Origin: Letharia columbiana
Lineage: Eukaryota; Ascomycota; Lecanoromycetes; Lecanorales; Parmeliaceae
NCBI RefSeq assembly: GCF_014066305.1
Contig: NW_023501061.1
Span: 620,001-684,000, forward strand
Direction of reading: 5' to 3'
Length of the DNA: 64,000 nucleotides
Part shown: piece after piece, positions 1 through 51,309 of the stretch
How the letters are laid out: the number at the start of each line of letters is the position of its first letter
How positions within the stretch are numbered: position 1 is the stretch's first letter
Position numbers and translations under genes: made by a program
Notes under the pieces: generated by a model
The model's input: only the letters and a program-made list of their open reading frames with translations
Told to the model about the DNA's origin: nothing
The model's database searches: none

Positions 1-1118
1 ATCATTCACCGGTTCAAGTCAAGTTCCTCGCCAGCAAAACCATGATCGTTTATAATTGCGATGCAGGCTGCGGAGCATGGTCGATCCAACACCTTGCCCG
101 TACGCGCGAAAAGAAGGCCAAGAACGGAGATACATTCTATAATTTTAGTCCCGCATTGGCCCCGTCCACAAATACGCATTGTGAGCATTGCGGATTCAAA
201 ACGCACCAGGCTGGACCAATGTGGGGTGGTCCCCTTCACAATTCTCATTTCATTCAACGCATCCTAGACATGCTCCCAGCCCTTGACAAGTCCATCTACG
301 GCACAATCCCTCGTATCCAAGGAATGCTTTCAGTCGCGCTCAACGAGACCCTCGAAGACCCTCTCTCGTCGTCCGCTGCCGAGCCTGGCGCCTCATCCGA
401 AGCATCGACTGGACCCATACCTCCCACTAATTCCGCGACTCGTGCTCGGCATCCATTCTTCTTCCTCCCCTCCGCTCTCTCTCGCATTCTTCACTGCGTC
501 TCGCCATCCGACGCCGCCATTCGTGGTGCCCTCATAGGCCTTGGCTACCGTACTACGCGCTCACATACCAAAGCCGGTAGTATCTGCACTGATGCACCCT
601 GGAGCGTTATCTGGGAGGTCATGAGGGAATGGGTCAGGCAGATGAGCCCAATCAAAGAGGGAGTGCTTAAAAATGGAATGGCAGGATGGGCAATCATGAA
701 AAAAGATAGAGGGAGCGCGAAGCTAATGGATGCGAAGAACGAGCTGCGGCAAGCACTGGAGAATGACATCATTACCGATGTGGTAGGATTGAAGAAAGAG
801 GTGGAAGCCGCCTTATACCGGCTGTCCAAGCCAGAGGAACCGAGCAAGGAGCGGGAAGACCCTCGTTGCGACGAAGATGGAGGGGTGGAGTTGCAGAGTA
901 CTAATGCTGCGGGAGCAGGGGAAGTTGGGGCTGTACTTAATCCTGAAGCCGAACACCGTGAAGACGGCCCTAGAGATAAATCTCTACATCCAAGCAAGCT
1001 CAAAATCGTGTTCGACGAAAAGCTAGGAAGGGAACCGCAAAGAAACCGCATGGTCAGATATCAGCTCAATCCAAAGCCGGATTGGGGCCCTATGAATAGG
1101 GCGAGGGGTGATCCCTAG
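1..1118 (+). CDS. TRM1: tRNA (guanine26-N2)-dimethyltransferase Trm1, 3' part (5' end outside window)
   Basis: The reading frame is open from the window edge (first full codon at base 3) to the stop at 1116-1118, about 371 residues. It is the C-terminal part of Trm1, the SAM-dependent enzyme that makes m2,2G26 in cytosolic and mitochondrial tRNAs. Family marks are the segment YNCDAGCGAW, the CEHCGFKTHQAGPMWGGPLH segment with its Cys pair and the GPMWGGPLH signature, and the HSFI-type stretch after it. The ATG at 42 is internal, because the frame continues upstream as VQVKFLASKT. The methyltransferase core must lie upstream of the window. The tail (residues ~250-340 of the visible part) is acidic, Ser/Pro-rich and probably disordered. 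No intron is visible here. Family assignment is firm. Confidence 0.9.
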   Translation, partial: HSPVQVKFLASKTMIVYNCDAGCGAWSIQHLARTREKKAKNGDTFYNFSPALAPSTNTHCEHCGFKTHQAGPMWGGPLHNSHFIQRILDMLPALDKSIYGTIPRIQGMLSVALNETLEDPLSSSAAEPGASSEASTGPIPPTNSATRARHPFFFLPSALSRILHCVSPSDAAIRGALIGLGYRTTRSHTKAGSICTDAPWSVIWEVMREWVRQMSPIKEGVLKNGMAGWAIMKKDRGSAKLMDAKNELRQALENDIITDVVGLKKEVEAALYRLSKPEEPSKEREDPRCDEDGGVELQSTNAAGAGEVGAVLNPEAEHREDGPRDKSLHPSKLKIVFDEKLGREPQRNRMVRYQLNPKPDWGPMNRARGDP

Positions 1119-3268
1119 AGTCAGCTGCGAGCTATGCTGATTTAGATATGCGCCCTTTTGCGACATCTATCTATAGGAGTTGCTTGTCCTGTCATCAGGG
1201 CGCCATCAATCATAGAGCCCGATCGCGCGCTCTAAAGTTGAGAGATCAGCATCCCGCAGACTAGCATCTTCCATGCAAACAAGTCAAACGAATCTAGACA
1301 TCGGTTTCCTGTCAGGTTCCACGCTATTGTCACTGCAAGGAGAAGACATCTGTCCCTGAAGAAGCTGAGTCTCAACAATGATTGCATCCCTTCACCTACG
1401 GACGCCTGTTCACCACACAGGAAGCATCATGTCTACCAACAAGGCAAAGAAGGCGGGGACCAGAACCCGCTTCCGAACATGTGTACTGTCACAACGTGGA
1501 ACCATATGATCAGCTGAAAAGAGGACGAGAGTACAAGAGGAAGCGGCACCACTTCCCAACGCCACCACTCCGTATGGCCATACATCAAGTACCCGCTTTT
1601 TCAGATTGGCAGTGGCAGTCAATGGTTTCCAAACTCTTGACGTTTCATCCACAAGAGGCATGAATGAGCCTATGGAAGTGAAAGGGCAGGATAGGAAAGG
1701 CAAGGGAAGGATAGCCGCTTCATGCCCTGCCTCGATCTAGTACACGCCGCGCAGATCTACCCCTAAGACGCCGGCAACATCCGTGTCGGTGTTTTACCTC
1801 TGTCGGCCAAGCTGCCGCATCTTGGGCAAATGAGAAGGAAGGAAGGATGTAACGTGCCATCTTCTGGGACACACCGTTGTAGGATCTGATCTTGATTCAT
1901 TTGGACAAGGCAGCGTAATCATGTGGCCAGTCATGAATCACTGACGCTCACACTTTGGATATACGGCAGCCGAGTGTCAATTATCGATGCAATACCGGAA
2001 AGCCGAGAGATTCATGGTTGTTATAGGCATATGTGCTGCCATTCCTGGGTTCCTCCTCGGCCGGGGTTGAGACTTCCCCGAGGCTCCAGGAATGTGCATA
2101 TGCTGAACATACGTATACTTTACCAACTTACGGGTTTTCGGGGTAGCTCGACACCGTCGCCCCCCAGGAAGGTCGCTGGAGGTATTGGTGGATTTAGGGT
2201 CGGGAATTCGGGGAATTCGGGTGAAGAGGCATATATGATCTTTTCTAGGCCTCGGCCGAGCTGTCAGCTCCGGTAATGCCGCCAGAGACGTTGACCAAGA
2301 CCCGAAAGCATCATTAAGTATCACATTTCATCCATTTCCCTTTTCCCAACAGTCACTGAGCGGTATCGCGGCTCACGGCTCGATAGATAAGCGCCATAGT
2401 GAAAGTGCAGCGGTAGATGTTGGTCTTGTTAAGTTAAGTTTGGTTGTACTTATAAGTTATACCTTATACATTATACCTTAGCGGAGGTCGAACCGTAGTC
2501 GTGAGCTCGGAGATTTGGATCTCGCTTACTAGTGTAGGTACTTTAGGGCTGAAGATTCAGGTGGGGGCATCAGGGGGGAAAAAGTCTTGACGGGAAGGAG
2601 ATATCTGGCGAATAGGTGACGTCAATATTTTGAACTTTTCCATCTCGCTACCTTAGACTCTAGAGATGGCTTTTCTTCTCCACCTCTTTTTCTAGCGAAT
2701 ACATACTTTAGTGCTTCAGATGTTTCGTGCATCGATCATTCCCTTGCCGGCTGCCGCCTTCTCCGCCACACTATCTCACACGCTTTTATGAATGAAAGCT
2801 CTCGATCAATGATATTTCATGTAATAGGCAATTCTACATCAATGATTGGCTCGCTCGGATGCAAGTGGAAGAGCTAGGAATGCACTGACCGGGGTAGCTT
2901 TGAAAAGCTTTTCGATAGTGGCATTTCATTGGCGTCATTGAACCAAACAAAGTCCAGACCTTGACCACCATTTGCAAGTGACATGATTCTACCACTACGA
3001 TTAGGTACTAGAATTTACTTTACTGGGCAAGCATGGATGCGGTCATGACCTCAAAAAGAATGCAGCCTACCGCCAGCTCCTGCCTTTTTGCCCGAGCTCT
3101 TCGCGAGCATTACGCGGTGTCGGGCTGACGAAATCATTGTTGATTCGGTAATTGCCACCCATACTAAGGTAGATATATATTCCCACCTGGCCACTTTCTT
3201 TACCCTTTTCCCTTTCATCACCCCACGTCGCTATTCAATCATTAGCACAAACATCCCATTGCTTCAAC
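1119..3268. other. Intergenic region, no gene recognised
   Basis: This is about 2.1 kb between TRM1 and the Rds1-like gene. Short open frames on both strands have no signal peptide, splice support or recognisable domain. The stretch 2430-2480 has runs of TTAAGTTAAG and TTATACC. Apart from the TATA-like element near 3172 I see no clear structure. Confidence 0.5.
3172..3181 (+). promoter_or_regulatory. TATA-like element upstream of the Rds1-like gene
   Basis: The stretch GATATATATT lies about 90 bp before the ATG at 3269, followed by a pyrimidine-rich leader (CTTTACCCTTTTCCCTTTC). That arrangement is common in highly expressed fungal genes. The call rests on position and composition only. Confidence 0.35.
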
Positions 3269-5040
3269 ATGTTTACTCGTTCAGCAATTGCTGCAATCTT
3301 GGCAGTGGCGCCAGCTATCCTAGCTGCCCCTGCCCCCGCTCCTCAAGTCACCGAGCCAGCATCCTTCGGTCCTGATGTCCAGGTCTCATACCAAGCTCAA
3401 AGTACCGCTGGTCCGGACTACCCACTCGCCGAGGAGCTCGGTGATGGATACACCAGCGCCACGTACCATGGTCCGTACACCGGCACGCCAACAACCACCG
3501 GTGCGGCGAATGGACCAACCACTCTTGCCGCCTCCATCCCGCCCTTGCCATTGAACCCGACGGCGACCTACTATAACACTGGTGGCAAACCCATTAACCC
3601 TTTACCAGCTCCATACACACCGGCTGGCGGTCTGGGCACGAACGGCACGCTCCCACGCTACATGGTGGAGAGTGACTTTGATTACGAGTCGATCGCGTTG
3701 GGCTTATACCAGGTTCGATTTGCTCGCTCTTAGGGACAGAAATTCTGCTGACACCGCTGATAGGAATGGATTGAGCTCGATCTCTTCCACGACGGCCTCG
3801 CTCGCTTCTCCGAAGCCGAATTTCTCGAGGCCGGCCTCACTTCCGAGTACATGTCCCTCATCGAATTCATGGCCGATCAGGAAACCGGCCACTCCACCCT
3901 GTTGACCAACATGCTCGGCGAGACTGCACCCAAGCAGTGCGTCTATGACTATCCATACAACACCGTCCGTGAATGGCTCGACTTTATGCAGCGTCTGACT
4001 CGTTTCGGAGAATCAGGCGTCTGGGGTTATATCAACCATCTCGACTCGCGTGAAGTTGGCCAGCTTCTGGCTCAGTCCATCGCTACCGAGGCTCGCCAGC
4101 AGCAGATCTTCCGCCAGATGAGCGGTCTTACTCCGATGGATGTATGGTTCGAGAACGGCTGGTGAGTTGGGATCGCAAACGTTCGGAGCGATATGGGGAA
4201 CTGACTTCGAAACAAAGGCCTCAGTCGTGGTCATGGACTATGCTCGCTCCTTACATCAGCTACTGCCCAGAGAATCAGACTCGTCTCGGTATGTGGATAC
4301 GCGGACACTGTTGTGTGGGACAGCAAAGCTGACAGCCTTGACAGCATGGCAAAATTTCCCCGTTCTTCACATTTTGAACAACGCCAACATCAACCGCTAC
4401 TCGCCCAACGACACCGCCCAGGATGGTAGCGAGGTCACTGGCTCCCGTATCACTGACCCGTCGATTTCCAACCTAACGTCAGGTTCATGCGAGAACCTCA
4501 ACGTTACCGGCTACGGTTGCGGCCCAGCGATTGGACACGTATGTTGCTCAACTCTTTCTGGTCCTATGATTTGGTACTGATCTTCATAGAACAAATCAGA
4601 ACCCCTCTCCTTCCCTGGCAAGAAAGTCCTCTTTGCTTGGGATGCCCCTGGCCAAGGTAAATACATACGTGTCTTTATTTCAATTCAATTCGCTGACATC
4701 ACTTACAGCGGTGGGTCCCAACAACAGCTACGTAACGTCTACAGCCGCAGGAGCACCTGCCTGGGTAGGATGGAGCCAGCAGCTCAATTTAACGTACGTT
4801 CCCTTCTTCCACCGCGTTGTACTGTGAGCTGAGAACCCAATCAGATATTCCCCATTGACCCTCACATCAAATTCCACCGGTTACACGTACCAGCCCGAGG
4901 GTTTTGTTTACGGCTCTGACGGCATCATCAACGGCACCATGGCCATTATGCTCACAGACCTCGACCTATTCGTTACGCCGTTCAACACCTCCATGTTGAA
5001 CCCCCACATTGTGGCACTGGGGCTCTACATGGCAGGCTAG
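3269..5040 (+). CDS. Secreted Rds1/LsdA-like stress and late-sexual-development protein (ferritin-like domain)
   Basis: Seven exons fit: 3269-3712, 3764-4161, 4218-4288, 4345-4538, 4590-4656, 4709-4793, 4845-5040, giving 484 residues with all phases consistent. The six introns are 51-56 bp. An N-terminal signal peptide (FTRSAIAAILAVAPAILAAP) is followed by a Pro/Thr linker. A ferritin-like helical domain comes next, including FMADQETGHSTLLTNMLG (acidic and His residues as in di-iron ferritin folds) and SIATEARQQQIFRQMSG. The spliced segment PQSWSWTMLAPYIS and the later WQNFPVLHI are typical of fission-yeast rds1 and Aspergillus lsdA relatives. Those genes respond to nutrient or stress state and late sexual development, and their biochemical role is not settled. 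There are several N-glycosylation sequons. The family assignment is good; the function is inferred. Confidence 0.85.
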
Positions 5041-5387
5041 GTGTTTGCCTTGTCCGTACCGTTCAATCGTCACAAGGCCATGTGTTTTGTGGGTAGAGGT
5101 TTGGCTGTGGGCTGTCGCTTACGCACAGCATAATGCCTTTACGAGGTTGTACTATCAATAAGAAAAGCGCTTTGTACCTAGCAGCGATTAAATGTAATCC
5201 TAATCAACTCATCGCGATGCCTTCCTTTGGCGTGCCTAACAATTCTTATCAGACACTCCCGCATTGATACCTTATTTAACATTACCATCGTCACAACTCC
5301 TACTCTTCCCACTCACAACTCAGAACTACCCACTTCGCCACGGCCCGACCGCTACTTCTCGGTAATGCTACCTAGGCTACTTCACTC
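5041..5387. other. 3' flank of the Rds1-like gene
   Basis: No gene is seen. The stretch presumably holds the 3' untranslated region (AATAAGAAAA near 5157). It ends in a run of C (5397-5407) that opens the polypyrimidine tract. Confidence 0.4.
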
Positions 5388-6376
5388 TTGTTAACTCCCC
5401 CCCCCCCCTCTTCCCTCCTACGTAAGATACCTCACACTTATATAGTTACAATACTCCGCCCTTTCCTTCGCTTTCCCTTTCTTTTCCTTCCTTTTCATCC
5501 CTTCCTTTTCCTTCCCTTCCTTTTCATCCCCTTCTTCTCATCCCTTCCTTTTCATCCCCTCCTTTTCATCCCCCTCCTGAAATCACCGTACTCTTTCTTC
5601 ATTTACGCGCTTGGTTGGTTGGTTGGTTGATTACTTGATTGATTGCTTGGTTACTTACTTGCTTGCTTGCTTGGTTGATTGGTTGATTGCTTGATTGATT
5701 GCTTGCTTGCTTGCTTGCTTGCTTGTTGCTTACTTGTTGCTTGATTGATTGTTACTTGATTGATTGATTGTTGTTCTTGATTGTTCTTGTTGATTGTTGT
5801 CTTGATTGATTGCTTCTATTGCTTGTTTTTTTGTTGATTGATTCCTTGCTTGCTTGCTTGCTCTTATTGTCTCTCCTTTCTTTTATTATCATTTCTTTTA
5901 TTATCATCATTTCTATCTTTTATTATCATCATTCCTTTTTATTATTATTATCATTTCTATCTATCTTTTATTATTATATCGATCTATCGATCTATCTATC
6001 TTCTATCCATCCTTCCACCCTTCCATCCTCCCATCCTTCCCCCTCCCATCCTTCCATCCTCCCCTTCCTAATCCCCCTCCCTTCTGATCCCCTACTCTTC
6101 CTTTCTCTTCTCTACTCTTCCCATCCCTTCTAATCCCCACTCTTCTCTTCCTTCCCTCTCCTCTCCTCTCCTCTCTTCTCTTCTCTTCTCTTCTCTTCTC
6201 TTCTCTTCTCTTCTCTTCTCTTCTCTTCTCTCCCCCTCTCTTCCCTTCCCTTCTACAAAACCGACCAACCAACCAAGTCTCCGTCCAGTGCACTACTCCC
6301 ATACTCTTCGGCTTTCTAACTTTTTTTCTTTCTTTCTTTCTTTCTTTCTCTCCCGCTCTACCCCCGCTCTCACCCT
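5388..6376 (+). repeat. Long polypyrimidine low-complexity tract with several microsatellites
   Basis: For nearly 1 kb the plus strand is almost pure C/T, or T-rich with TTGATTGC-type repeats. Sub-blocks are CCTTTTCATCCC-like repeats (5480-5575), TTGG/TTGATTGC arrays (5608-5850), TTATTATCAT arrays (5880-5975), CCATCCTT repeats (6005-6060), a (TTCTC)n pentanucleotide array (about 6170-6232) and (TTTC)n (about 6322-6350). Open frames here are by-products of the repeats. Such tracts can form triplex (H-DNA) structures; that is general knowledge and was not tested here. Confidence 0.9.
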
Positions 6377-29898: not shown

Positions 29899-32800
29899 GA
29901 ATCACCTTTGATGTGGGGGAAAAGATCATATCTCAAAGCAAGAGGCTTCCTTCTGGGGGAATTCCGTTGCAAAGAGCATACTAATTGACAAAGAAAGCAA
30001 ATGCCGTTAAAGATATATTGAAAACTCCTCAACCAGAAGACACGGCACGTAACCCCACTAGTCTTGACAATTTCTACAAACTCGATGAGAATAGAGACTC
30101 GACAGCTCGCAAATAGTCCCAACGTCTATGGTCCTTGAAGTTCGAACACACCCGTTGCCTAGGTGTACCGATAACCTGCATTGCTGGTTTGTAAGCCATG
30201 TGCTAGAGAAAACATCAATGACTACAGTATGAATCGTAAGTCCCGGAAACCCACAGCTCTTTGGGCCTCGAGATCGAATTTGATAAACATACACGTCAAC
30301 GGCAACACCAACCTCGAGATACGACTGCGGCAGAGACCGAAGATCTATCTGTCTCATTAGAGATCCCTCTTCGTTTCTTCTCTGACATCTCTCTGTCGTC
30401 TTTACTTGTATCGTTTCACTTCTTTTGTTATCACGATGTCAGGTGATAGCCAGGGGTAGGAGAGTACCGCAGGGCAGGAAAGTATCAGCAAGTTAAAGTA
30501 GTAACCGCAAGGTTGACAACTTTTTCCGATAAGGTAGGTAGGTAGGCTAAGTGTGGAAGATGTCACTTGCGCTGAGGGCGGAATCTTTGAGTCGATCAAT
30601 TTTTTTCAACGGTGCCAATCTGCGCTTTACACTTATGATTGAAGCAGACTATCGCTGCCTTAGACGAGGAGGACTAGTTCATGATCTGAAAAATCTGCGA
30701 GTCAGTTATTCTTTTTTTGGTGTTGTTTATTTGTTTTCCGAAAAAAATATGTTGTGGGAGTTTTTGCTTCTATTTAAAACTAACATTAACCAAGGCCTGG
30801 TTTTTTTGACGTGGTCTTAACCTGAGTGGAAAAAGCACTTTTGTCCTTTGCATACTGTTACCTATTTTATCTTTTGTTTAATGTTTTCGTGTTTTTTTTG
30901 ATCTTTATTTCCTACCTACCTTTTTTAATTATTTTTTCTTTTCATATCTCCCTTTCCCTTTCTGCGAAAAGCCCTCCTCTGTTGGTTTTGGTTCTTTTTA
31001 TTTTTTTTGGTATACTTTTTTTTTGTGTATTAATAGTAGATATACTATGTGTGTCTTTAAAGTTACTGCTGTTGTTTTATTAAAGTTTATAGGGGTAAAA
31101 CAGCTACCAAACGAAACATTGTTCACTTATAAACTTGATAAAAAAATACACTTTGCGATTCCCGTGGTGCCCACGCCGAAAGTCCTGGACGCCAAGACTT
31201 CGAATACGAGTACGAGTAGCGGGGACCTTTGAGTCCGGCGTCACGTCCCTCATCGCCCTGTATTTACCTTGAAGGGTGTTCCATTGTTTTCCGGTGTTCT
31301 CTGAATCCGTACTCTACACACGCATCCCTGGCTTAAAGATACGCACCGGTATTCATACTTTCCGGAACTACCAGTGATCTCTGGGATATTTTCGGCCGTA
31401 TATCGCAGTCTCCGTAGCCCGCAGAGGGGAAGACGCCCCCTGCTCGCCCGGCGGTTTAAACAGATGGGTTCTCAAACCGCTGCGCCTTCTTTGCCGTCTA
31501 TCGTGGGGCAAAGCTTTCCTCATCTATTCCAGGATGTTCGCTCATATACCTCTTCAAAATAATCTTGACGGCTTGTGCTTCCTTTGTGCGTTGGTGATCT
31601 ACATCATCTATTTCGATCGAAGGGTAAGCGCTCACACGAGGCTTAGCTCTCGTTGTCTTGAGGCCTACCGGCCTGATGATGCCATCAGAGGTGGATGGCT
31701 CACTCGGTGATCAAACACAGGCTGCCGGAAGAGTCCGCCGTAGCTGAGCTTCATGGACTCGTTAACGGCGTAGACAAAGGAAGTCCTTCTACAGCGCTGT
31801 GATTGTCGACGAGTGCTACCCGAGGGCTTTGGCCTCCAGGTCTACGAAGCGTTACTCAGCCTCCCGTGAGGACCAAGAGGCTGATGCAATCAATGATGAC
31901 CTTGTCATCCATCTGCCAATGACAGAATCCAGACTTATTACTAGTCAAAAGGTAGGGCCCCTATAGACGCCGAGACATTTGCCGCGCTCAAGGTATATCA
32001 AAGAACTTGGGTTCGGCACTTTACGTGCTCAGCCTCCTAAGCCTTTCCTAAATCCGCAGTCCCCATTAATGTAATCATTTGATACTACTCTTCACTCTGT
32101 CTTAGAGTGGGATAGGGTTGCAAAGGGCTTAGCTCTACTGATCCCTTTGTCGAGTGAAGCGGCTGATAAATCGTCAAGGACGTAAGGCATGAGACTTGTA
32201 CAAGAAATCACATACCCTATCCCAAATGCTGCCACCTGGCCTGAGAGGCGCAGAAGTGCCACTTTCATACACAATTACGATTCAGAGTATCGTGTATTAA
32301 CAACCTGGTGACGAAATGCAGTTGAACCCTGTAATTTCAAGGATCTCCGGGCGGAGTGGCGGAAGACACAGAGCGTGGTAGGTGAATTACTAAGACCAGT
32401 TGCAGCCATAGCTTTACGGATCCGAAAAGATTCGAAACGAATAACTAAGAACAGCGGATACTCTCTGTATCGAAAAATCTGGGTGATTTGAACCTATGTG
32501 ATGGCCACGGAGATATATTGATATCAATAAGCTATGTTCTGATTTGAAAATCGGGGACTCAAGACGACCGCTTTTTCATACAGCTTGTTTGGCAGTCAAT
32601 GGAATGACTCGAGCGTGCCGCAGCCTCGCGAAAATCCAGATGATGAGACATCGGTCGAGCCTGACACATCACTTTGGCATGGAATTTTTAGTCACTGGTA
32701 CCCACTTGCAGCTCAGAATAGCTGAAGGGCAGATCGGAAACATTCCAATAAGATGAACCCGCATCCACACCAGAGTGTTCGTTTGACAACTGTGATTTTC

Positions 32801-41729: not shown

Positions 41730-42554
41730 TCACAGTTGCACCTTCTCTCCAGCCCCGTCCACAAAGCTCTGTTCTTGAAACTTTTTAAAGTCCTGCTGCA
41801 TCTTCAAATGACTCGCGATGAACCTGTCCAACCGGCCTCTATCGTAGTATTTCCGCGCTGCTGCCGCCCCGTTCCCAAACGCGTCCAAAATATCAGAGAT
41901 GTAGTCCGTGACGGCTGCCAGAGTCGCCGTGTCCAGTGCTTCCGTGTCTGCCCTCGCAACAACCACGTTTCCAACCCGACCTTGCCATTCCGCCGGTGCG
42001 AACCCCGTGACGGGATCGATCATCAGCCACGTGGCGTGCTGATTGTCTTCCAGCGGTTCTCTGACGTCCGCCACGCTGCAACGCTGTACGAGCAGCGGGA
42101 ACCCGATCTTCTGCGATATAGGCACCGGCGAGGTCCTGAACATCAGATCGTCGCGCGGAGTGAGCCATTTCGAGTATCGCGCTCCGCCGTCCACTGAGGC
42201 GTACATCATGACTGTTCTGGCAACAGCATCTTTGGCGGAGGCGGGGTAGGGGTCGACACAGGCGGGCCTGTGGTCCTTCCAGTCCTCTTTCTGACAGAGA
42301 CTGCTGCAGTAGGTAACGCCGTTGCAGCAGGCGCAGGGCACAGTGAGTTGGTCTGGTCGCGCGGCACAGCCGAGGTTGGAGCATTGCTTCGGCGGGACTT
42401 TGGCGCTGGGACGGGTCGAGCTCTTGCAGGCGGTCTTGTGTTGCGGCCAGTCTTTCTTTTGACACGTGCCGCTGCAGTATGAGGCTTGTTTGCAGCCGGC
42501 ACAGCGCTTGGTGCATTGGGTTGTACAGCTGGGATTGGCGCAGGTCTCTGCCAT
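41730..42554 (-). CDS. Protein with two N-terminal MYND zinc fingers
   Basis: A single exon of 274 residues from ATG 42554; the open frame upstream to 42563 begins with TTG. Two MYND-type fingers are in tandem. The first is C-x4-C-x4-C-x2-C...YCSGTCQKKDWPQHKTAC (about residues 5-43). The second runs from CSNLGCAARPDQLTVPCACC to YCSSLCQKEDWKDHRPAC (about 58-99). MYND fingers bind proline-rich peptides and act in transcription or ubiquitin-type complexes. The C-terminal 170 residues, with WLMIDPVTGFAPAEWQGRVG, look like an acidic globular domain of unknown family. The gene is intact although the LINE insertion site begins 88 bp upstream of its ATG, so its promoter was probably separated from its original upstream sequence. 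Confidence 0.8.
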   Translation of the reverse strand: MAETCANPSCTTQCTKRCAGCKQASYCSGTCQKKDWPQHKTACKSSTRPSAKVPPKQCSNLGCAARPDQLTVPCACCNGVTYCSSLCQKEDWKDHRPACVDPYPASAKDAVARTVMMYASVDGGARYSKWLTPRDDLMFRTSPVPISQKIGFPLLVQRCSVADVREPLEDNQHATWLMIDPVTGFAPAEWQGRVGNVVVARADTEALDTATLAAVTDYISDILDAFGNGAAAARKYYDRGRLDRFIASHLKMQQDFKKFQEQSFVDGAGEKVQL

Positions 42555-42641: not shown

Positions 42642-42656
42642 TGCAGGTTCGAAAGT
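42642..42656. repeat. Target-site duplication, left copy
   Basis: TGCAGGTTCGAAAGT is identical to 48640-48654 on the far side of the A+T-rich element. The flanking bases differ (left GG/TT, right TT/CC), so the duplication is exactly 15 bp. Confidence 0.85.
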
Positions 42657-42684
42657 TTGATTGATTGATTGATTGATTGATTAC
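42657..42684 (-). repeat. TCAA-type microsatellite tail at the LINE 3' end
   Basis: The plus strand reads TTGATTGATTGATT... directly inside the left target-site duplication. On the element's coding strand this is a (TCAA)n tail ending at the insertion point. Short repeat tails in place of poly(A) are known for several LINE groups. It fixes the element's orientation as minus. Confidence 0.75.
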
Positions 42685-45600
42685 ATCATACTACCCTGAA
42701 GTCTTACCCTAGTGGCCGACTATGCGAATTACGTAATCTATCTGATCCTTTTAGCTAATTATATAATCTCAAATAAATAAGGCTATATAAGTCACCGTCA
42801 TGGTTCGCGTCTTATTATACTTGATCCTTAGAAAGGGGTATACCCTACATCGCTAGAGCCCTTTCATCTTAATCGTATCCTTCTTTTTAACCGTCTACCC
42901 TAGTGAATTCTTATTATTAATTCTTATTAAGAGCTTAATATTATCTAATAAGTCTAATACTTCTTATAAAGTTCGTTGCTATAGAGGCGTAGCGTAATTT
43001 TATTAGTATATCCTTATAAGTAATAACCCTCTCTTTACCTTTCTTCTTTCTTTAATCTATTATATTCCTCGCTTCTTACTAAATAGCCTATATTTATAAA
43101 AGATATATCGAACTATCTACTTCGCTTTACACTCGTATTCTTTTATCCTCTATATTCGATATCTATCGATTATAAAGAAAGGCCTTAAGATTTATTTTCT
43201 CGATTTTTATTTATATTATTAGCAACGTCTTAGCGCGCTTAACTCTCGAATATAAAAGTTATATTTATTTTAACGATATTAATTAAATTCTTCTAAGAAT
43301 ATCGCCTCGCTTCTTATTAATCTATTTGATAGTTTATTATTTTTATTATATAGTCTCTAATAGCTATCTTAATTATCGATATTATTCTTATCTATATAAT
43401 TAATAATTAGACTATTTCGTTAATATTTACCTTTACTCTTTTATTATAAATTACTCACTCTCGCTAATTAATAGCCTTCTTCGTCTCTCTATCCGCTTAT
43501 TTATTATTATTAATATTAATATATATCGAAATTTAATATAATTCTATTATTACTTCGAGATATCTAAGCGAATTAATAATCTATACTATTTATATCATAT
43601 AGATCTATTTTTAAATACTTACTCGAGTCTTCGATAGTTTAAATTAATACTTAATTATTCGTATTTACTATAACTCTACTAAGTTATAATCTTATTTAGT
43701 ATATAACTATTATAGTTAGAGCTTAAAGAATATTATATAACTTCGTTAAGTATATTATATATTAGTCGCTTAAGTCTAAATAGATATTAAAAATAAAATT
43801 AATATCTAACGATATAGCTAATACTCTTATTTTTTTATTAATCCCGCTATCGTCTATATATATTATTATATATCTCTTATTAATCGATCTTTTAGCTAAT
43901 TCTTTAGCAGCTTTCTTAGTCTTATAAATTATTATTTTAAGAGGCTCTTAATTAAAAGCGGCGCTAAAAGGGCGTAGTTTCTTAATCTTATTAATATTAT
44001 TATATCGTTCTTCGAATTTATTAGTATATCGCTTTAGTAAACTTAGTTTCTTATTCTTCTTAAGTTTTCTTTTAGACTTTTATCGCTCGAAATATAATTT
44101 AATAATCTCGCTATATACTAAACTAATAGCGATTTATAAAATAGCTTTTAAGATAATTTTATCTAGCTATTATTTAACTAATAGAAGATATACTTCTATA
44201 TCGAGTACTAAAATAAATATAGTCTTAAATACTTTAATTATCTTTCTTTCTATCTAAGATTAAATTCTTTATAGCGATAAGAGATAAATTTTATTATAGT
44301 TAATAGTGTCTTTTAGACTAATATTATATTAAGTAATAATATATTATTTATAAGATAATTACCGCCTAATAGAGCTATCTTATACTCTTATAATTATTAC
44401 TCTATATTAATCTAATAATTCTCGCTAATATATCGATATTTTTAATAGCTTTAGATCGAATCTTCTTATTATAATAGCTTTATAGAAATTTAAAGTCGAT
44501 TTCGACTTCTAAATAGCGAATAAAGCGTCTTATCTTAATATATTATCTCTTATTAAGTTATAGAGAATAATTTAAACTAAATCTCTATTTTCTATTAAGG
44601 TGTAGTAGTTAATATTTACTAGAATTAAACTTTAATTTATATTATAACACTTACTTTATATAAACTTCGTTATAGATTTTATAAAATACGTTATAGTTTT
44701 CCTCGATAGAGTCTTTTATTATTAGAAGATCTATATCGTTTATAAAGTCGATAGCTATTATTTCTAAGTCGACGCGATTATTATATTTATCGATAAGATT
44801 TAAGTTATAGAAGAGATAAAGTATAGATAATAGCGGTAATTCTTAAGAAATTTCGGTTACTATAAAAGTCTTTAATATAAAGTATTCGCTTATTTTTAAT
44901 ACTATTATTTTATTAGATAAGAACGATTCTATCTAGTTAACTACTCTTATATCGATTTTTCACTTTTAAAGATTATAGAGTAGTCGAGAATAAGAGACTT
45001 TATTATATATATCTGAAACGTCTAATAGTAATATCGTAGCTACTTTATTAGAGTTCTAGATCTAATATATTCTTTCTAGAAGATAGTGAATACCGTGTTT
45101 ATATAATTGTAATCTACGATCTCTTATATATATAGCCAATAGAAGTCTATATATCTTTATAAGATATGCTATTCTCTTAATAAGAATAAACTTTATTATC
45201 TTTTCTATAGTATTAAGTAGAGCTATTAACCGATATCCTTTAGAAATCGAGTAATCTTTATTTAACTTCGAAAGAATAATTGTTATCGATATTCTAAAGT
45301 ACTCTAAATAGTAGTCGTTCGTTATATATATATTAAATATTCTATATAGATAAGAAAGTAATAACTTTAGAATCTTCTTGAGAATTAGATTAGAGATTAT
45401 ATCTCCCTCGATATTCTCTTTAACGATACTTACATTATAGCCTTTCTTATTTTATTTATAATAATTATACTTATTAGATAGACTTATAAATACGCTATAT
45501 CGACGTTAATATTATTTAACTTTATCTATATCGATAATAAAAAGAACGTTCTTATAAGAAGATCTACCTTTAAGTCTAATTCGTTATATTCTTATTTATC

Positions 45601-48600
45601 TTTATTAAATAGCGAAGAGAGATATATCTATATTATAAGTTATTTTCTAGCTTACTTAATCTTTTTCATATTATTTATAACGACTCATACGCCTTTATTA
45701 TAAACTCTCTAAACGCCTTTCTAGTAATTCTCTTAATTAGATTATTTTTTAAAGTTCTTAGCGACTTTATATTTATTCTATACTTTCTTTAAAAGCGTTA
45801 TTCTTTAACTTCTTTTTAGTAATTTATAATATCTTTATACTTTCTTATATTCTAATATAAATTCTAATCTAAATTATAGTAATAATCTAATAATCGAAGT
45901 AGACTTCTTTATAGTCGCTTAAATAGAGTTAATAATAATCGCTATTTAATAATTAATACTATTATTAATAAGGTTTTTATTATTTTTCTAGAGATTAATT
46001 AGATACTCTTTTCGATATTATAACTCTAGCGAGTATCTCTCTTAGAATCTTAGCGTTTAATTTATTAAAGTTTCGGCGTATTATTAATACTAACTTTATC
46101 ACGATTAGCTTAAGCTTTATAAGAATTAAAAGATAATTAAATTCGTTTTCGAAATTATTTTCGATATTATAATTAATAATATTTATTATTAATACTAAAG
46201 TAACGAATAATAAATCTATTATTATTTAATAGTTTTCTTTATATATTATTATTTCTATTAGTAATATTTATTTTATAGTAAATTCTTTCGCTATAAGTAT
46301 TAGTTCTTCTACTCTCTTATCGATATAAGTATTTAATTTCTCTTATATTATATAGTATAGATTAAAGTTACCTAGTATAATCTATTCGTTATTCTTAAAC
46401 TCTATAAGCGTTTTATATAGTTCGTTAAGTTTATCTATTTATTAATCATCGAGATTATAGATATTATATATATATATAATTTTATTATTTTCGAATTTAA
46501 TATTAAGAGTGTAGAGGTTCGATAAGTAATATAATAAATATTATTACTTTAATAATATTCTCTTATTAATATAGAAGTATACTCGTATATTATTATAATA
46601 GAGATAGATTAAGTTAAATCTATTCTTTAGAGAATAATACGATATATTTATATTAATATTTCTCTAGAGCTTCTAAATTACTACTATATCGATATTATAA
46701 ATCTTTTTATTATTAAAGAGTTTTACTATAACTATTCTAGATTTTTTATATTATATTATAGTATTAATAGCTAACTAGAGTATACTATTATTTCTTAATA
46801 TTATTATTAATATTACTTACTCGCTTCGCCTAGTTTATAGAGTTTATATCTTCTTTCTAAGTATTCTTCTTTTCTTAATTATCGATAAATCGAATATATC
46901 TCTTTTATTTCTATTAACGGAGATCGTAATTCTCTTATTATCACTCTTTTTAACTTAGGGACTATCTATTATTCTCGAGATTATTAATTTCCTCTATCGC
47001 TATATTATTCTTATATTATTTAACTTTATCTACTACTTTAAAGAGTAATCTATTTCTAAACGAGATTCTTATTAATAATATAAAAGTATATCTTTTTTAC
47101 TTGACTAGAGATTTGATATAGTAGTTCTTTCGAGGTTCGGCGCTCTAATTTCTTCTCTATTAATTATCTTATTTTTATCTACTAGTCTACCGCGCGTAAA
47201 TATTAGTCTTAAAAAAATTCTTTATTTCGTCTATAATTAGACGTATTCTAAGAGTAGTTATTTAATTAATTACTTATTTAATAGCTAGCTAATATCTTCT
47301 TTATTATTATAAATTATAAAGAAATTCATTATCTCGCTATTCTCATTCTCGCTATCTCCTCTTCTTTACTATATATATCTTATTTTAAGCCTTATATAAT
47401 CTCTTATAAACTAGATATTTACGAGTATTAACCGTATAATCTTTATAATAATATTTCTCTAAATATTTCTCGTATACTAAATAATTCTTTTTAGAGTATA
47501 TAATCGATAGATAATTATATTTTTAATATATAAAGTATTACTTTAATCTATACTATTTATTATAGACGTAATAATCATATAATTTTAAATCGATAATTAG
47601 ACCTTCTTTTAATACTCTATTTTCTTTCTCTAAAAATACTAATTTAATAATTAATAAACTCTTATTATAACTCTCTTTATTCGCGCTAAATTAGCTTAGC
47701 TATACTATATTAAGACTTAGCGTATTAATATTCTCATTCTAAATCCTTTTTAATTATCGTAACTATATCTTTAATATCGAATATATTAATCCTTAGTCCT
47801 TACTCTATAAAGTAGAAGACTATACATTTTAATAATTACTCTTATACTATTATTTATCTTTAGAGTTTAATTCTTACTTTTTCTTAGTTTATTTATCTTC
47901 TTCTTATTTATAGCTATAATATATATATCGTTACTCGCTAGCCTTCTAGCCGTTCTAATAGATTTTCTTATAATATTTATACTCTTTATATATCTATTAA
48001 TTATTATAATTATCTCGCTTAATATCTTTTCCTCTAATATTTTACTTATTATCTCGTTTTATAGCTTTATAATAATCTTATTTAGCTTATTATATAATAC
48101 TTAGTCTTATTTCGATATTACTAATAATATAATAGAGATTTCTTCGATAATAAAGAAGAATATCGAGGATTAGTTTAGTACGCTAGTATAGCTAGTTATC
48201 GATATATTACTTTCTAGACTAGCTATCTAATACTTAATATATATAATCTTTTTTCTATATTATTATCTTAATTACTTAAGTTAATAACTAGTTTATATAC
48301 TTTATTTAAGACTATCTAGTTTTAAATTTATTATTTACTCTTTCTATAAATATTATCGCCGCTCTAAGGTAGTAGCTACTTCGTTTATTAATAGTTTCTA
48401 ATTTTCATCTATTATTTTTAATATAATATTTATCAATAACTTTAGTATAAATACGTATTTCTTAAAATTATAGTTATTATAATTCTATTAAGACTAGCTA
48501 ATCTTATTTAATATAGTTATAAAAATATAAATATCCTCTAAAGTTAATTAAAGAGATACTAGTCTTACTAAATACTTTAAATATATATATCTACTTTTTA

Positions 48601-48639
48601 TAGCTCAATAATATAACATAGCGTTGTCGAAAGTTTTTT
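42657..48639 (-). mobile_element. RIP-degraded LINE (non-LTR) retrotransposon, endonuclease-RT-RNase H type
   Basis: About 6 kb of very A+T-rich sequence holds no open frame of 60 codons on either strand. Decayed protein motifs are readable on the minus strand, in the order of a LINE ORF2. The first is the AP-endonuclease site, read as LGNFN (46375-46361; family LGDFN). The next is the RT block ILYLFYN (44824-44804), continuing in frame to AIDFINDIDLL (catalytic FIND at 44749-44738; family FVDD) and DSIEENY. The last is the RNase H start YIDDSGIN (about 43863-43840; family YTDGSG). The mismatches are G-to-A or C-to-T, as RIP makes. Endonuclease-to-RT spacing is ~1.6 kb, as expected. The 3' end carries a TCAA-type tail. 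An RNase H domain suggests the Tad/I group. Confidence 0.88.
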
Positions 48640-48654
48640 TGCAGGTTCGAAAGT
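48640..48654. repeat. Target-site duplication, right copy
   Basis: TGCAGGTTCGAAAGT is an exact copy of 42642-42656. It is preceded by T runs at the 5' end of the element and followed by ordinary-composition DNA. Confidence 0.85.
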
Positions 48655-48891: not shown

Positions 48892-51309
48892 TTACGCGCC
48901 GTCATATTTATGTACTCCATGCAAAGTAAAGGCCTTCGTGAAACTGATCCCCTTCCCCAATAAAATCGCAAACGTCGTCCCCAACGTCGGTCTCGCATGC
49001 GCCGTCACAAACGTCCCCGCCCGACTCCCATTCACGTAAAACCGATCAGCAAACGGCACCGTATTCTTGCCATTGGTAAAAAACGCATGCTCAAAACCAA
49101 TGATGGTGTCGACATCGGTTGGGCAGGTCGCCGCAATCCACATGTCCCACATCCCATTGGCGATATCATCCTGTACGCTCGCGTAGGGAATGCCAACGCT
49201 CGTGGCTTGCGACATGTACCAGGAGCACTGCATTGAGACTGCGGCGGTCGGGAAGGTGCTCAGATTGAGGTATTGGTCCGGGAAGAGATTGAAGACCGTG
49301 CCCCATGATGTGGACATGCCGTAGTTGTAGGTGAAATGCTGGGGAGTGCCGTTGGTGAATGTGCCGTTGCTGTTGAGGTTCGTGCCGAGTCCTTGCGTGT
49401 ATATCGTCCTGGCGAAGCTCTGAGCTGTCCGTGTGTAAGCTTGGTTGCCTGTTAGCGCTCCGTAGGCTTTCAGGCCTATGGCGGATGTTATGGCCAAGTT
49501 TGTTTGCTTGGCGGTTGCTTTGATCGAGTCGACGGTGTCATATTGCAGTGAAGGGTTCAGACCGCTGGTTTTGAGGTAGTCGGCGAATTGCTGGAAGAGC
49601 TTTCTGTGCGATTGGGCCCAGGTTTCGTCGCCGGTCAGTTGCTGGTATTGGTATACCATTATCAGAAAACCACCCGTGGCTTCAAGAAGGATTTTCTCGG
49701 AAGTAGCGTTGGTACGTCCGGTTGCTACAGGATAGGCTGGAGCTATATGTCAGCGAAGACCACTGGGGGATTCCTTAGATCAGGCTTACTGCCAAGGTCG
49801 TGCACCACATAGTCAGCAGTCCATGCTGGGCTCTCGGAGAATATGGCAACCGGTTCAAGCAAATACTTGATCCAATCTGGGCTCATGACACCTAGGATGG
49901 TAGAGGTTGGATATACTACGTCGACAGTATTTACATCTCCGTTCGTGGATATCTCTTTCAAGAAGACGTATGGATTGCTCGTGTCAGCAGTGTTGCTGGC
50001 GGGAAGTGTGATTTCCATGGCGCCATAGCTGAGGGGCAAGTCAGCAGCTCGCTCGGTTCTGACAGAATTGCAGCCTACCATTGCCGTACGGCTGCTGTCG
50101 TCAGATCAGTATAATTGCTAGAGATCGAACTCGTCTCGCTAATAATGGCCTTGTCCAAGGTTTGAGATTCCACGTATGCTGACTGATAATCGTTCAAAAA
50201 GGCATCGACGGTTTCTAGCACATTACGGTACTTTGACTTGAAGAACCCAACTTGGTCATTGCCCAGGTAATTGACCACATTATCTCTGTACTGGCCCACA
50301 GCGAATGTGACGGAGGAAGTTGAAGTGGTAGACACCGTGCTGAGCTTCTGAGCAAAAGCAATCCAATTACCTCTCCCATGGGTCGGTAAAGTTCTATCGA
50401 GGCTTCCAGACTCGACAAACTTGCTGAATACAGTGTCAAGCGGGCCACTCTGATAAGTAACTGATGAGCTGCCGGCTTGGCTGGTCGCAAGCACAATGGA
50501 GCCCCAAGCTGCCATCTCGTTGATCTCTGTATAGTCAGCAGCTTTGGGGTCAGTCAAACTTATCACAGAGGTAGCCCCTGTGTTCTGATGCTGTAACACG
50601 AGGTTATCCGGCTGGCCATATCACGAATCATCAATTGCGCTTAAAATTTGGACATCAGAGCTCCCGGCGACTGATATAGTGACATAGCTAAAAGGAAAAG
50701 ACTGCCGAAGGTGATTATTTGGTGAGACAGGGGAGAAGAAGTCCACGACGATGCTAGCGGCGCCCGCATCTAATTCGGCTATCGTGTGGGTTGCAGTGTA
50801 ACCAATGGATTTTTGCGTTGCTGTTGTGGTGTTTGTGATGCCATCTGGCGCACCAAAGAGCGTGAATGTTTTGCCATCGACTTGCGCCAGGATAGTCCAT
50901 CCTAATGTCGTTTTGCTGGTCCAAAATTCGGCTTGGGCTGTGGGCAGATTGCTGACTTGGGAGCCGGGCAGCCAAGCTGTAGAATGTCAGTCTGCCGACG
51001 ATGCTCTGGACTACGTAGGCTTTCGAAGGATGGTACTGACCTGATAGGTATGGATTCCTTACGGCCTGTTGATGATAAGTATATTGTGGGCCGTCGCTAA
51101 TAACGATGGTGACTCACCAGGGGCAATGATGGTGCTTGAAACCCAGAGACGGTGACATCCTGGCGTTAGTCAGTACGGCGTAAAAAAGCCGACATTTCAA
51201 GACAGACCAGAGGATAGGGCCTGATGTTCTCAGGGAGAGCCGAGGCAAACGGAAGGCAGCACGCAAAGTACAAACACAGCCGGAGGATCGTTCCTGAATC
51301 TGAAGCCAT
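48892..51309 (-). pseudogene. Glutaminase A-like secreted enzyme gene with one in-frame stop
   Basis: Six exons fit in phase: 51309-51208, 51159-51118, 51065-51041, 50976-50079, 50028-49790 and 49742-48892. They total 719 codons, the usual size of fungal glutaminase A (DUF5127/DUF4965/DUF1793 layout). There is a signal peptide (LRLCLYFACCLPFASALP), then LPLAVRNPYLSAWLPGS, QVGFFKSKYRNVLETVDAFL, PDWIKYLLEPVAIFSESPAW, YNYGMSTSWGTVFNLFPDQY and a typical end GFEHAFFTNG...RFYVNGSRAGTFV. The enzyme would hydrolyse extracellular glutamine. The only lesion seen is TGA at 50621-50623 between IDDS and YGQPDN in exon 4. A TGG-to-TGA change explains it, and no splice sites remove it in frame. Everything downstream is open, so inactivation is recent, or the base is a sequencing error or is read through. 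Confidence 0.8.

What the first reader, a model, noticed from the sequence alone, without database searches (positions are those of the whole stretch)
42642..48654. A RIP-mutated LINE with perfect boundaries and still readable catalytic motifs
The 6-kb A+T-rich block is exactly bounded by a 15-bp target-site duplication (TGCAGGTTCGAAAGT). On the minus strand it reads, in LINE order, endonuclease LGNFN, RT FIND and RNase H YIDDSG. Each differs from the family motif by C-to-T or G-to-A changes. That the duplicated target site is unmutated right up to the edge shows how sharply the mutation process stopped at the element. The RT segment stays in one frame for over 40 codons despite heavy mutation, so substitutions dominate over indels.
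Basis: partly seen in the sequence, partly recalled or inferred. Interest (0 to 1): 0.8.

Follow-up and report, generated by a model that had tools for sequence, protein, structure and literature searches.

The report
RIP-mutated fungal LINE, intact kin elsewhere
This is a dead copy of a fungal jumping gene (a LINE) that the fungus's own repeat-mutating defence appears to have riddled with C-to-T changes; nearly identical unmutated copies were found on two other contigs of the same genome, which makes it a useful but largely familiar example.

Summary
Window 42657-48639 is one LINE insertion on the minus strand, bounded by a 15-bp target-site duplication that occurs only twice in the 52.2-Mb assembly, at these two edges. 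All 29 of 29 internal 200-bp windows pass RIP thresholds, against 33 of 289 outside. Unmutated kin settle the identity: EN, RT and RNase H domains in a C8 copy, and two stop-free frames in a full-length C116 copy. Against C116 the window element shows 1,643 C>T/G>A changes, 20 other substitutions and 23 indels.

The claim of a sharp stop is only partly right: mutation fades inside the last ~200 bp at the LINE 3' end.

Further points. (1) The context order is CpA>CpC>CpG>CpT; a paper gives CpA>CpT>CpG>CpC for Neurospora (PMC5496416, passage). (2) Mutation patterns in 20 copies are nearly independent, so each was mutated in place. (3) The six matches of 98-100% identity to the C8 copy lie on C8 and C116 only (capped search), resembling the RIP-free supernumerary refuge of Fusarium poae (PMC4994206). 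C8 is not wholly RIP-free.

A new member of a known kind.

The parts
42642..42656 (.). target-site duplication, copy at the LINE 3' end
   Evidence: exact 15-mer, two places in the assembly
48640..48654 (.). target-site duplication, copy at the LINE 5' end
   Evidence: exact 15-mer, two places in the assembly
42657..48639 (-). RIP-mutated full-length LINE
   Evidence: aligns to the unmutated C116 copy from position 1 to 5986 at 71.5% identity
42657..42682 (-). 3' tail, (AATC)n on the LINE strand, read as (GATT)n on +
   Evidence: sequence
42657..42856 (-). 3' zone with reduced RIP
   Evidence: CpA mutated: 1 of 8 in the last 60 bp, 11 of 19 in the next 140 bp
46785..48514 (-). relic of ORF1 (zinc-knuckle protein)
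   Evidence: mapped from the 575-aa C116 frame
42845..46791 (-). relic of ORF2 (endonuclease, RT, RNase H)
   Evidence: mapped from the 1,320-aa C116 frame
46361..46375 (-). endonuclease motif LGNFN (LGDFN in kin)
44735..44746 (-). RT motif FIND (FVDD in kin)
43843..43860 (-). RNase H motif YIDDSG (YTDGSG in kin)

Best explanation
A Tad-like LINE inserted by target-primed reverse transcription between a glutaminase A-like gene and the start of a zf-MYND gene, leaving a 15-bp duplication and an (AATC)n tail. It arrived essentially unmutated. As one of many copies it was then recognised as repeated DNA and mutated in place by repeat-induced point mutation, C>T on both strands, most likely over one or more sexual cycles. 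The process prefers CpA, then CpC, CpG and CpT, and weakens near the ends of the element, more gradually at the LINE 3' end. Shown: insertion structure, family identity, mutation type and context, near-independence of the copies, the fading, and near-identical unmutated copies on contigs C8 and C116. Inferred: the insertion mechanism, that RIP proper (premeiotic, RID-dependent) did it, and that C8 and C116 form a RIP-poor, perhaps accessory, compartment that can supply fresh copies.
For: Unique TSD at the edges. RIP indices. 925 C>T and 718 G>A against 20 other substitutions relative to C116. Near-equal rates on both strands per context. EN, RT, RNase H in the C8 copy; ORF2 of C116 related by sequence to R2 and LINE-1 proteins in the PDB. 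Residual correlation of mutation patterns among 20 copies: median -0.06, maximum 0.21. Unmutated copies have their own TSDs: 14 bp (L053), 13 bp (L054), 15 bp for C8:1299287-1305053, of which the first bases could belong to the tail. Non-RIP variants of the C8 copy recur in mutated copies, some in 10-17 of the 21 loci compared. PF00145 methyltransferase domains on 5 contigs.
Against: The 5'/3' difference in fading is not explained by a simple symmetric edge effect. Pfam on the window copy itself stays below cut-off. No RID gene or sexual cycle was shown; MATalpha found nothing, but its control was silent too, so this says nothing. C8 has a 1-kb RIP-like stretch and two PF03184 matches with 4 and 6 stops.
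Confidence: 0.94

Rival explanations
1. The C>T load comes from slow spontaneous deamination of methylated cytosines in silenced DNA, not from RIP.
For: Same mutation type; silenced repeats are often methylated in fungi (recalled).
Against: 1,643 C>T/G>A against 20 other substitutions in one copy: slow decay would have left many more other changes. CpG is only third in preference. Copies are graded from 98-100% to about 71% identity while non-RIP changes stay few.
Confidence: 0.03
2. Mutated copies were themselves re-mobilised in trans, so the window copy was inserted already mutated.
For: The 3' end, which LINE RT would need to recognise, is the least mutated part.
Against: Mutation patterns at unsaturated sites are nearly uncorrelated: only one pair of copies reaches 0.21, the next 0.11.
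Confidence: 0.03
3. On the unmutated copies: C8 and C116 are not an accessory compartment but foreign or recently transferred DNA, or a contaminant, or the copies are simply new insertions not yet through a sexual cycle.
For: C8 and C116 copies are 98.6% alike. C8 contains some RIP-like sequence. The rve family (PF00665) does not set C8 apart: 0 of 6 matches on C8 have 2 or more stops, but only 2 of 16 elsewhere do.
Against: Random new insertions should not fall only on about 1.49 of 52.2 Mb. By my count of the table, 0 of 14 RT matches on C8 have 2 or more stops against 116 of 136 elsewhere (Fisher 8e-11; the rows are related copies, so not independent). Non-RIP variants are shared with the mutated copies.
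Confidence: 0.4

Closest known systems
Tad1-type fungal LINEs (Neurospora crassa Tad1)
   Same: Two frames, zinc knuckles in ORF1, endonuclease, RT and RNase H in ORF2 (Tad1 architecture recalled); heavily RIPed: RIPCAL used Tad1 as its RIP-positive control (PMC2621366, passages).
   Different: A different element, not aligned to Tad1 here; CpC is the second most mutated context; unmutated near-identical copies coexist in the genome.
Fusarium poae core and supernumerary genomes (PMC4994206: abstract, passages and section 13 seen)
   Same: Mutated copies over most of the genome, unmutated copies of the same family on a small part of it.
   Different: There no RIPed TE copies were found on the supernumerary part; here C8 holds RIP-like stretches and its chromosome status is untested. 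The TE table rows that I saw there name LTR, DNA and unclassified elements, no LINE.
RIP with other context orders: N. crassa CpA>CpT>CpG>CpC; Trichoderma reesei with CpA and CpG about equal and CpC last (PMC5496416, passage)
   Same: C>T with CpA first or joint first.
   Different: CpC second and CpT last.

Membership tests
LINE (non-LTR retrotransposon) | LINE-type reverse transcriptase | tested here: met
   PF00078 1.6e-28 in the C8 copy; C116 ORF2 matches R2 and LINE-1 proteins in the PDB
LINE (non-LTR retrotransposon) | 3' tail, target-site duplications, 5'-truncated copies | tested here: met
   (AATC)n tail and exact TSDs of 13-15 bp in 6 of 22 loci examined (L003, L007, L010, L012, L053, L054), plus one C8 copy; L053 is 5'-truncated at position 263 with a 14-bp TSD
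Tad-like clade | ORF1 with CCHC knuckles, ORF2 with APE-type endonuclease, RT and RNase H | tested here: met
   Pfam EN, RT, RNase H; CCHC seen by eye, no Pfam family in ORF1. That these features mark Tad is recalled.
Tad-like clade | RT groups with Tad elements in a tree | not tested
   no named clade references; 1,054 protein kin, 120 listed, the named ones filamentous ascomycetes
RIP | C>T on both strands with dinucleotide bias | tested here: met
RIP | confined to repeated DNA | tested here: met
   for this element: sharp contrast of body and flanks; some other copies have AT-rich flanks
RIP | premeiotic, dependent on RID | not testable with these tools
   PF00145 on 5 contigs; one protein (L063) looks RID-like by recall only
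RIP-free accessory compartment | no RIPed repeats, dispensable between isolates | tested here: inconclusive
   unmutated copies of this LINE only on C8 and C116 in a capped search, but C8 has RIP-like sequence; dispensability not testable

The most novel reading that the evidence does not exclude
In this fungus RIP follows a reordered context rule (CpA>CpC>CpG>CpT) and is polar on a LINE: it runs close to the 5' edge and sometimes beyond it, but fades over the last 200 bp at the 3' end whatever the insertion site, which points to a boundary signal or an asymmetric homology tract at the LINE 3' end. With a RIP-poor refuge on C8 and C116 that keeps unmutated copies, this would be a self-renewing source-and-sink system.
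Probability: 0.2. Interest if true: 0.6.

Novelty: new member of a known kind. Interest (0 to 1): 0.35.

Why it matters
A set of 20 copies, mutated to different degrees, plus unmutated near-identical copies in one genome gives a natural calibration of RIP: its context rule, how it behaves at edges, and whether copies are hit one by one. TSD pairs serve as built-in before-and-after controls for RIP spreading into flanks. If C8 and C116 prove to be accessory, this would be another case of a RIP-poor refuge for transposons.

Tried and rejected
Pfam on the window copy read through in five frames found nothing above cut-off; identity came from kin instead. The idea that C8 is wholly RIP-free was dropped after L058 and the PF03184 matches. 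PF00665 did not separate C8 from other contigs. The MATalpha search was uninformative because its control was silent. A test of whether artificial (truncated) edges fade like the 3' end was inconclusive: mutations ran to those edges, but several of the copies are fragments or are interrupted by another repeat, so the edges need not be homology edges. An RIP-tolerant search for imperfect TSDs had no chance control; I use it only for L006 (4 changes in 14 bp) and L008 (2 changes in 15 bp) and give no weight to L009. The literature searches for CpC-to-TpC and for gradients gave 0 and 2 papers; I do not claim that these points are absent from print. Two apparent neighbours lack any check beyond Pfam.
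Full report
Insertion. The block is 42657-48639 on the minus strand, flanked by TGCAGGTTCGAAAGT at 42642-42656 and 48640-48654. The word occurs twice in the whole assembly, both times here. The LINE 3' end, with its (AATC)n tail, lies on the left. It sits 87 bp upstream of the first ATG of a zf-MYND gene (41730-42554, minus; PF01753 8.7e-17) and 237 bp from the end of a glutaminase A-like frame (48892-49659, minus; PF16335 4e-50).

Mutation. The body has G+C of about 0.22 and very few CpA/TpG. With PI>=0.89 and SI<=1.03, 29 of 29 internal 200-bp windows are positive and 33 of 289 outside.

Family in the genome. The window element finds 39 matches in its own genome, with 28 of 151 candidates scored; its 3' 344 bases find 40 matches, with 40 of 67 candidates scored. 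Both are lower bounds. The body indices of the 19 copies measured all point to RIP, the least affected being L012 (SI 0.40) and L015 (SI 0.51).

Unmutated kin. C8:638165-643873 carries a copy of normal composition. It has endonuclease (PF03372 3e-9, PF14529), RT (PF00078 1.6e-28) and RNase H (PF00075 3.3e-9) domains, is 5'-truncated at position 263, has a 14-bp TSD, and its ORF2 is broken across three frames. C116 holds a full-length copy with a 13-bp TSD and two stop-free frames, ORF1 575 aa from its ATG and ORF2 1,320 aa. The two are 98.6% alike, with 58 mismatches. That unmutated copies exist is stated as a fact of the genome; none is proposed for use.

Comparison. Against the C116 copy the window element has 925 C>T, 718 G>A, 4 reverse transitions, 16 transversions and 23 indels, 21 of them single bases. 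The other 19 mutated loci have 1-18 transversions and 4-12 reverse transitions each. The window copy has more indels than most (range 1-23); this is unexplained.

Context. Pooled over 20 mutated loci, away from the ends: CpA 13,320/13,862 (0.96), CpC 8,295/12,270 (0.68), CpG 4,854/11,285 (0.43), CpT 2,485/13,814 (0.18). In the two least mutated loci: 0.81, 0.49, 0.25, 0.11. Sequential mutation does not make CpC look high: a CpC whose second C is lost becomes CpT, the least mutated context; CpG can be inflated by passing through CpA. Two RIP-like stretches not aligned to this LINE, L059 (first 2 kb) and L058 (first 1 kb), show the same residual pattern: CpA most depleted, CpC next, CpG and CpT in excess. 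They may contain other repeats; their identity was not checked. A passage in PMC5496416 gives CpA>CpT>CpG>CpC for N. crassa; passages of PMC2621366 mention depletion of CpA, CpC and CpG in Stagonospora nodorum, so strong loss of CpC may not be unique.

Independence. At 1,558 unsaturated sites the residual correlation between pairs of loci has median -0.06; the largest is 0.21 (L005/L014), the next 0.11. Copies were therefore mutated one by one after insertion.

Edges. CpA sites mutated by distance from the LINE 5' end (10 loci with that end): 11/17 (0-20 bp), 15/28 (20-40), 9/10, 33/40, then mostly above 0.88. From the 3' end (16 loci): 10/69 (0-20), 18/31, 15/32, 8/16, 57/96, 67/109, 65/80, then 0.9. 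At 60-200 bp: 265 of 290 at the 5' side (the 20-locus set) against 354 of 527 at the 3' side (28 loci of the 30; L036 and L051 dropped because no 3' end was aligned). Fisher p is 6e-16, but sites within copies are not independent. In pairs, 10 of 11 loci with both ends are less mutated at the 3' side; L008 is the exception.

Compartment. In one search (30 of 124 candidates scored), the six matches at 98-100% identity to the C8 copy, itself included, lie on C8 (five) and C116 (one). A further C8 match has 88%. All other matches have 69-91%, the 91% one being 43 bp long. Three of these copies have their own TSDs. For RT matches in general (150 scored of 250 candidates; my count by eye), 0 of 14 on C8 have 2 or more stops, against 116 of 136 elsewhere. 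Against this: a 1-kb RIP-like stretch at C8:1200001 (1 of 4 samples of 2.5 kb), two PF03184 matches with 4 and 6 stops on C8, and PF00665, which does not separate C8. The F. poae paper describes core RIP with no RIPed TEs on supernumerary contigs (PMC4994206). I hold the compartment reading as likely but unproved.

Clade. 1,054 protein kin were found, the best 85% identical; named kin include Pochonia, Purpureocillium, Verticillium, Beauveria and Talaromyces. Architecture fits Tad-like LINEs; this assignment uses recalled features. The species was not identified.

Noticed in passing
L013, L016, L019, L020, L022 (insert positions): Inserts of about 590-680 bp interrupt five LINE copies at different places; in at least four, near-inverted ends of the kind ATCTGCAAATCTGAAAAGTT are visible, and the inserts are themselves AT-rich (GC 0.23-0.27). 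Looks like a RIP-affected small DNA transposon.
   Followed up: partly
L010 and C8:1299287-1305053 (L061, L062): A 16-bp filler lies between the TSD and the LINE 5' end in both, with different but faintly similar sequence.
   Followed up: no
window 48608-48654: The TSD and the LINE 5' end share ACTTTCGA on the minus strand; other copies carry ACTTTCG at their own 5' end, so this may be microhomology or chance.
   Followed up: partly
window 30001-32000: Mildly RIP-like composition (PI 1.03-1.05, SI 0.95-0.98).
   Followed up: no
L003, L011, L021: More indels against the C116 copy (23, 15, 22) than the other mutated loci (1-9); assembly error or an older subfamily not told apart.
   Followed up: no
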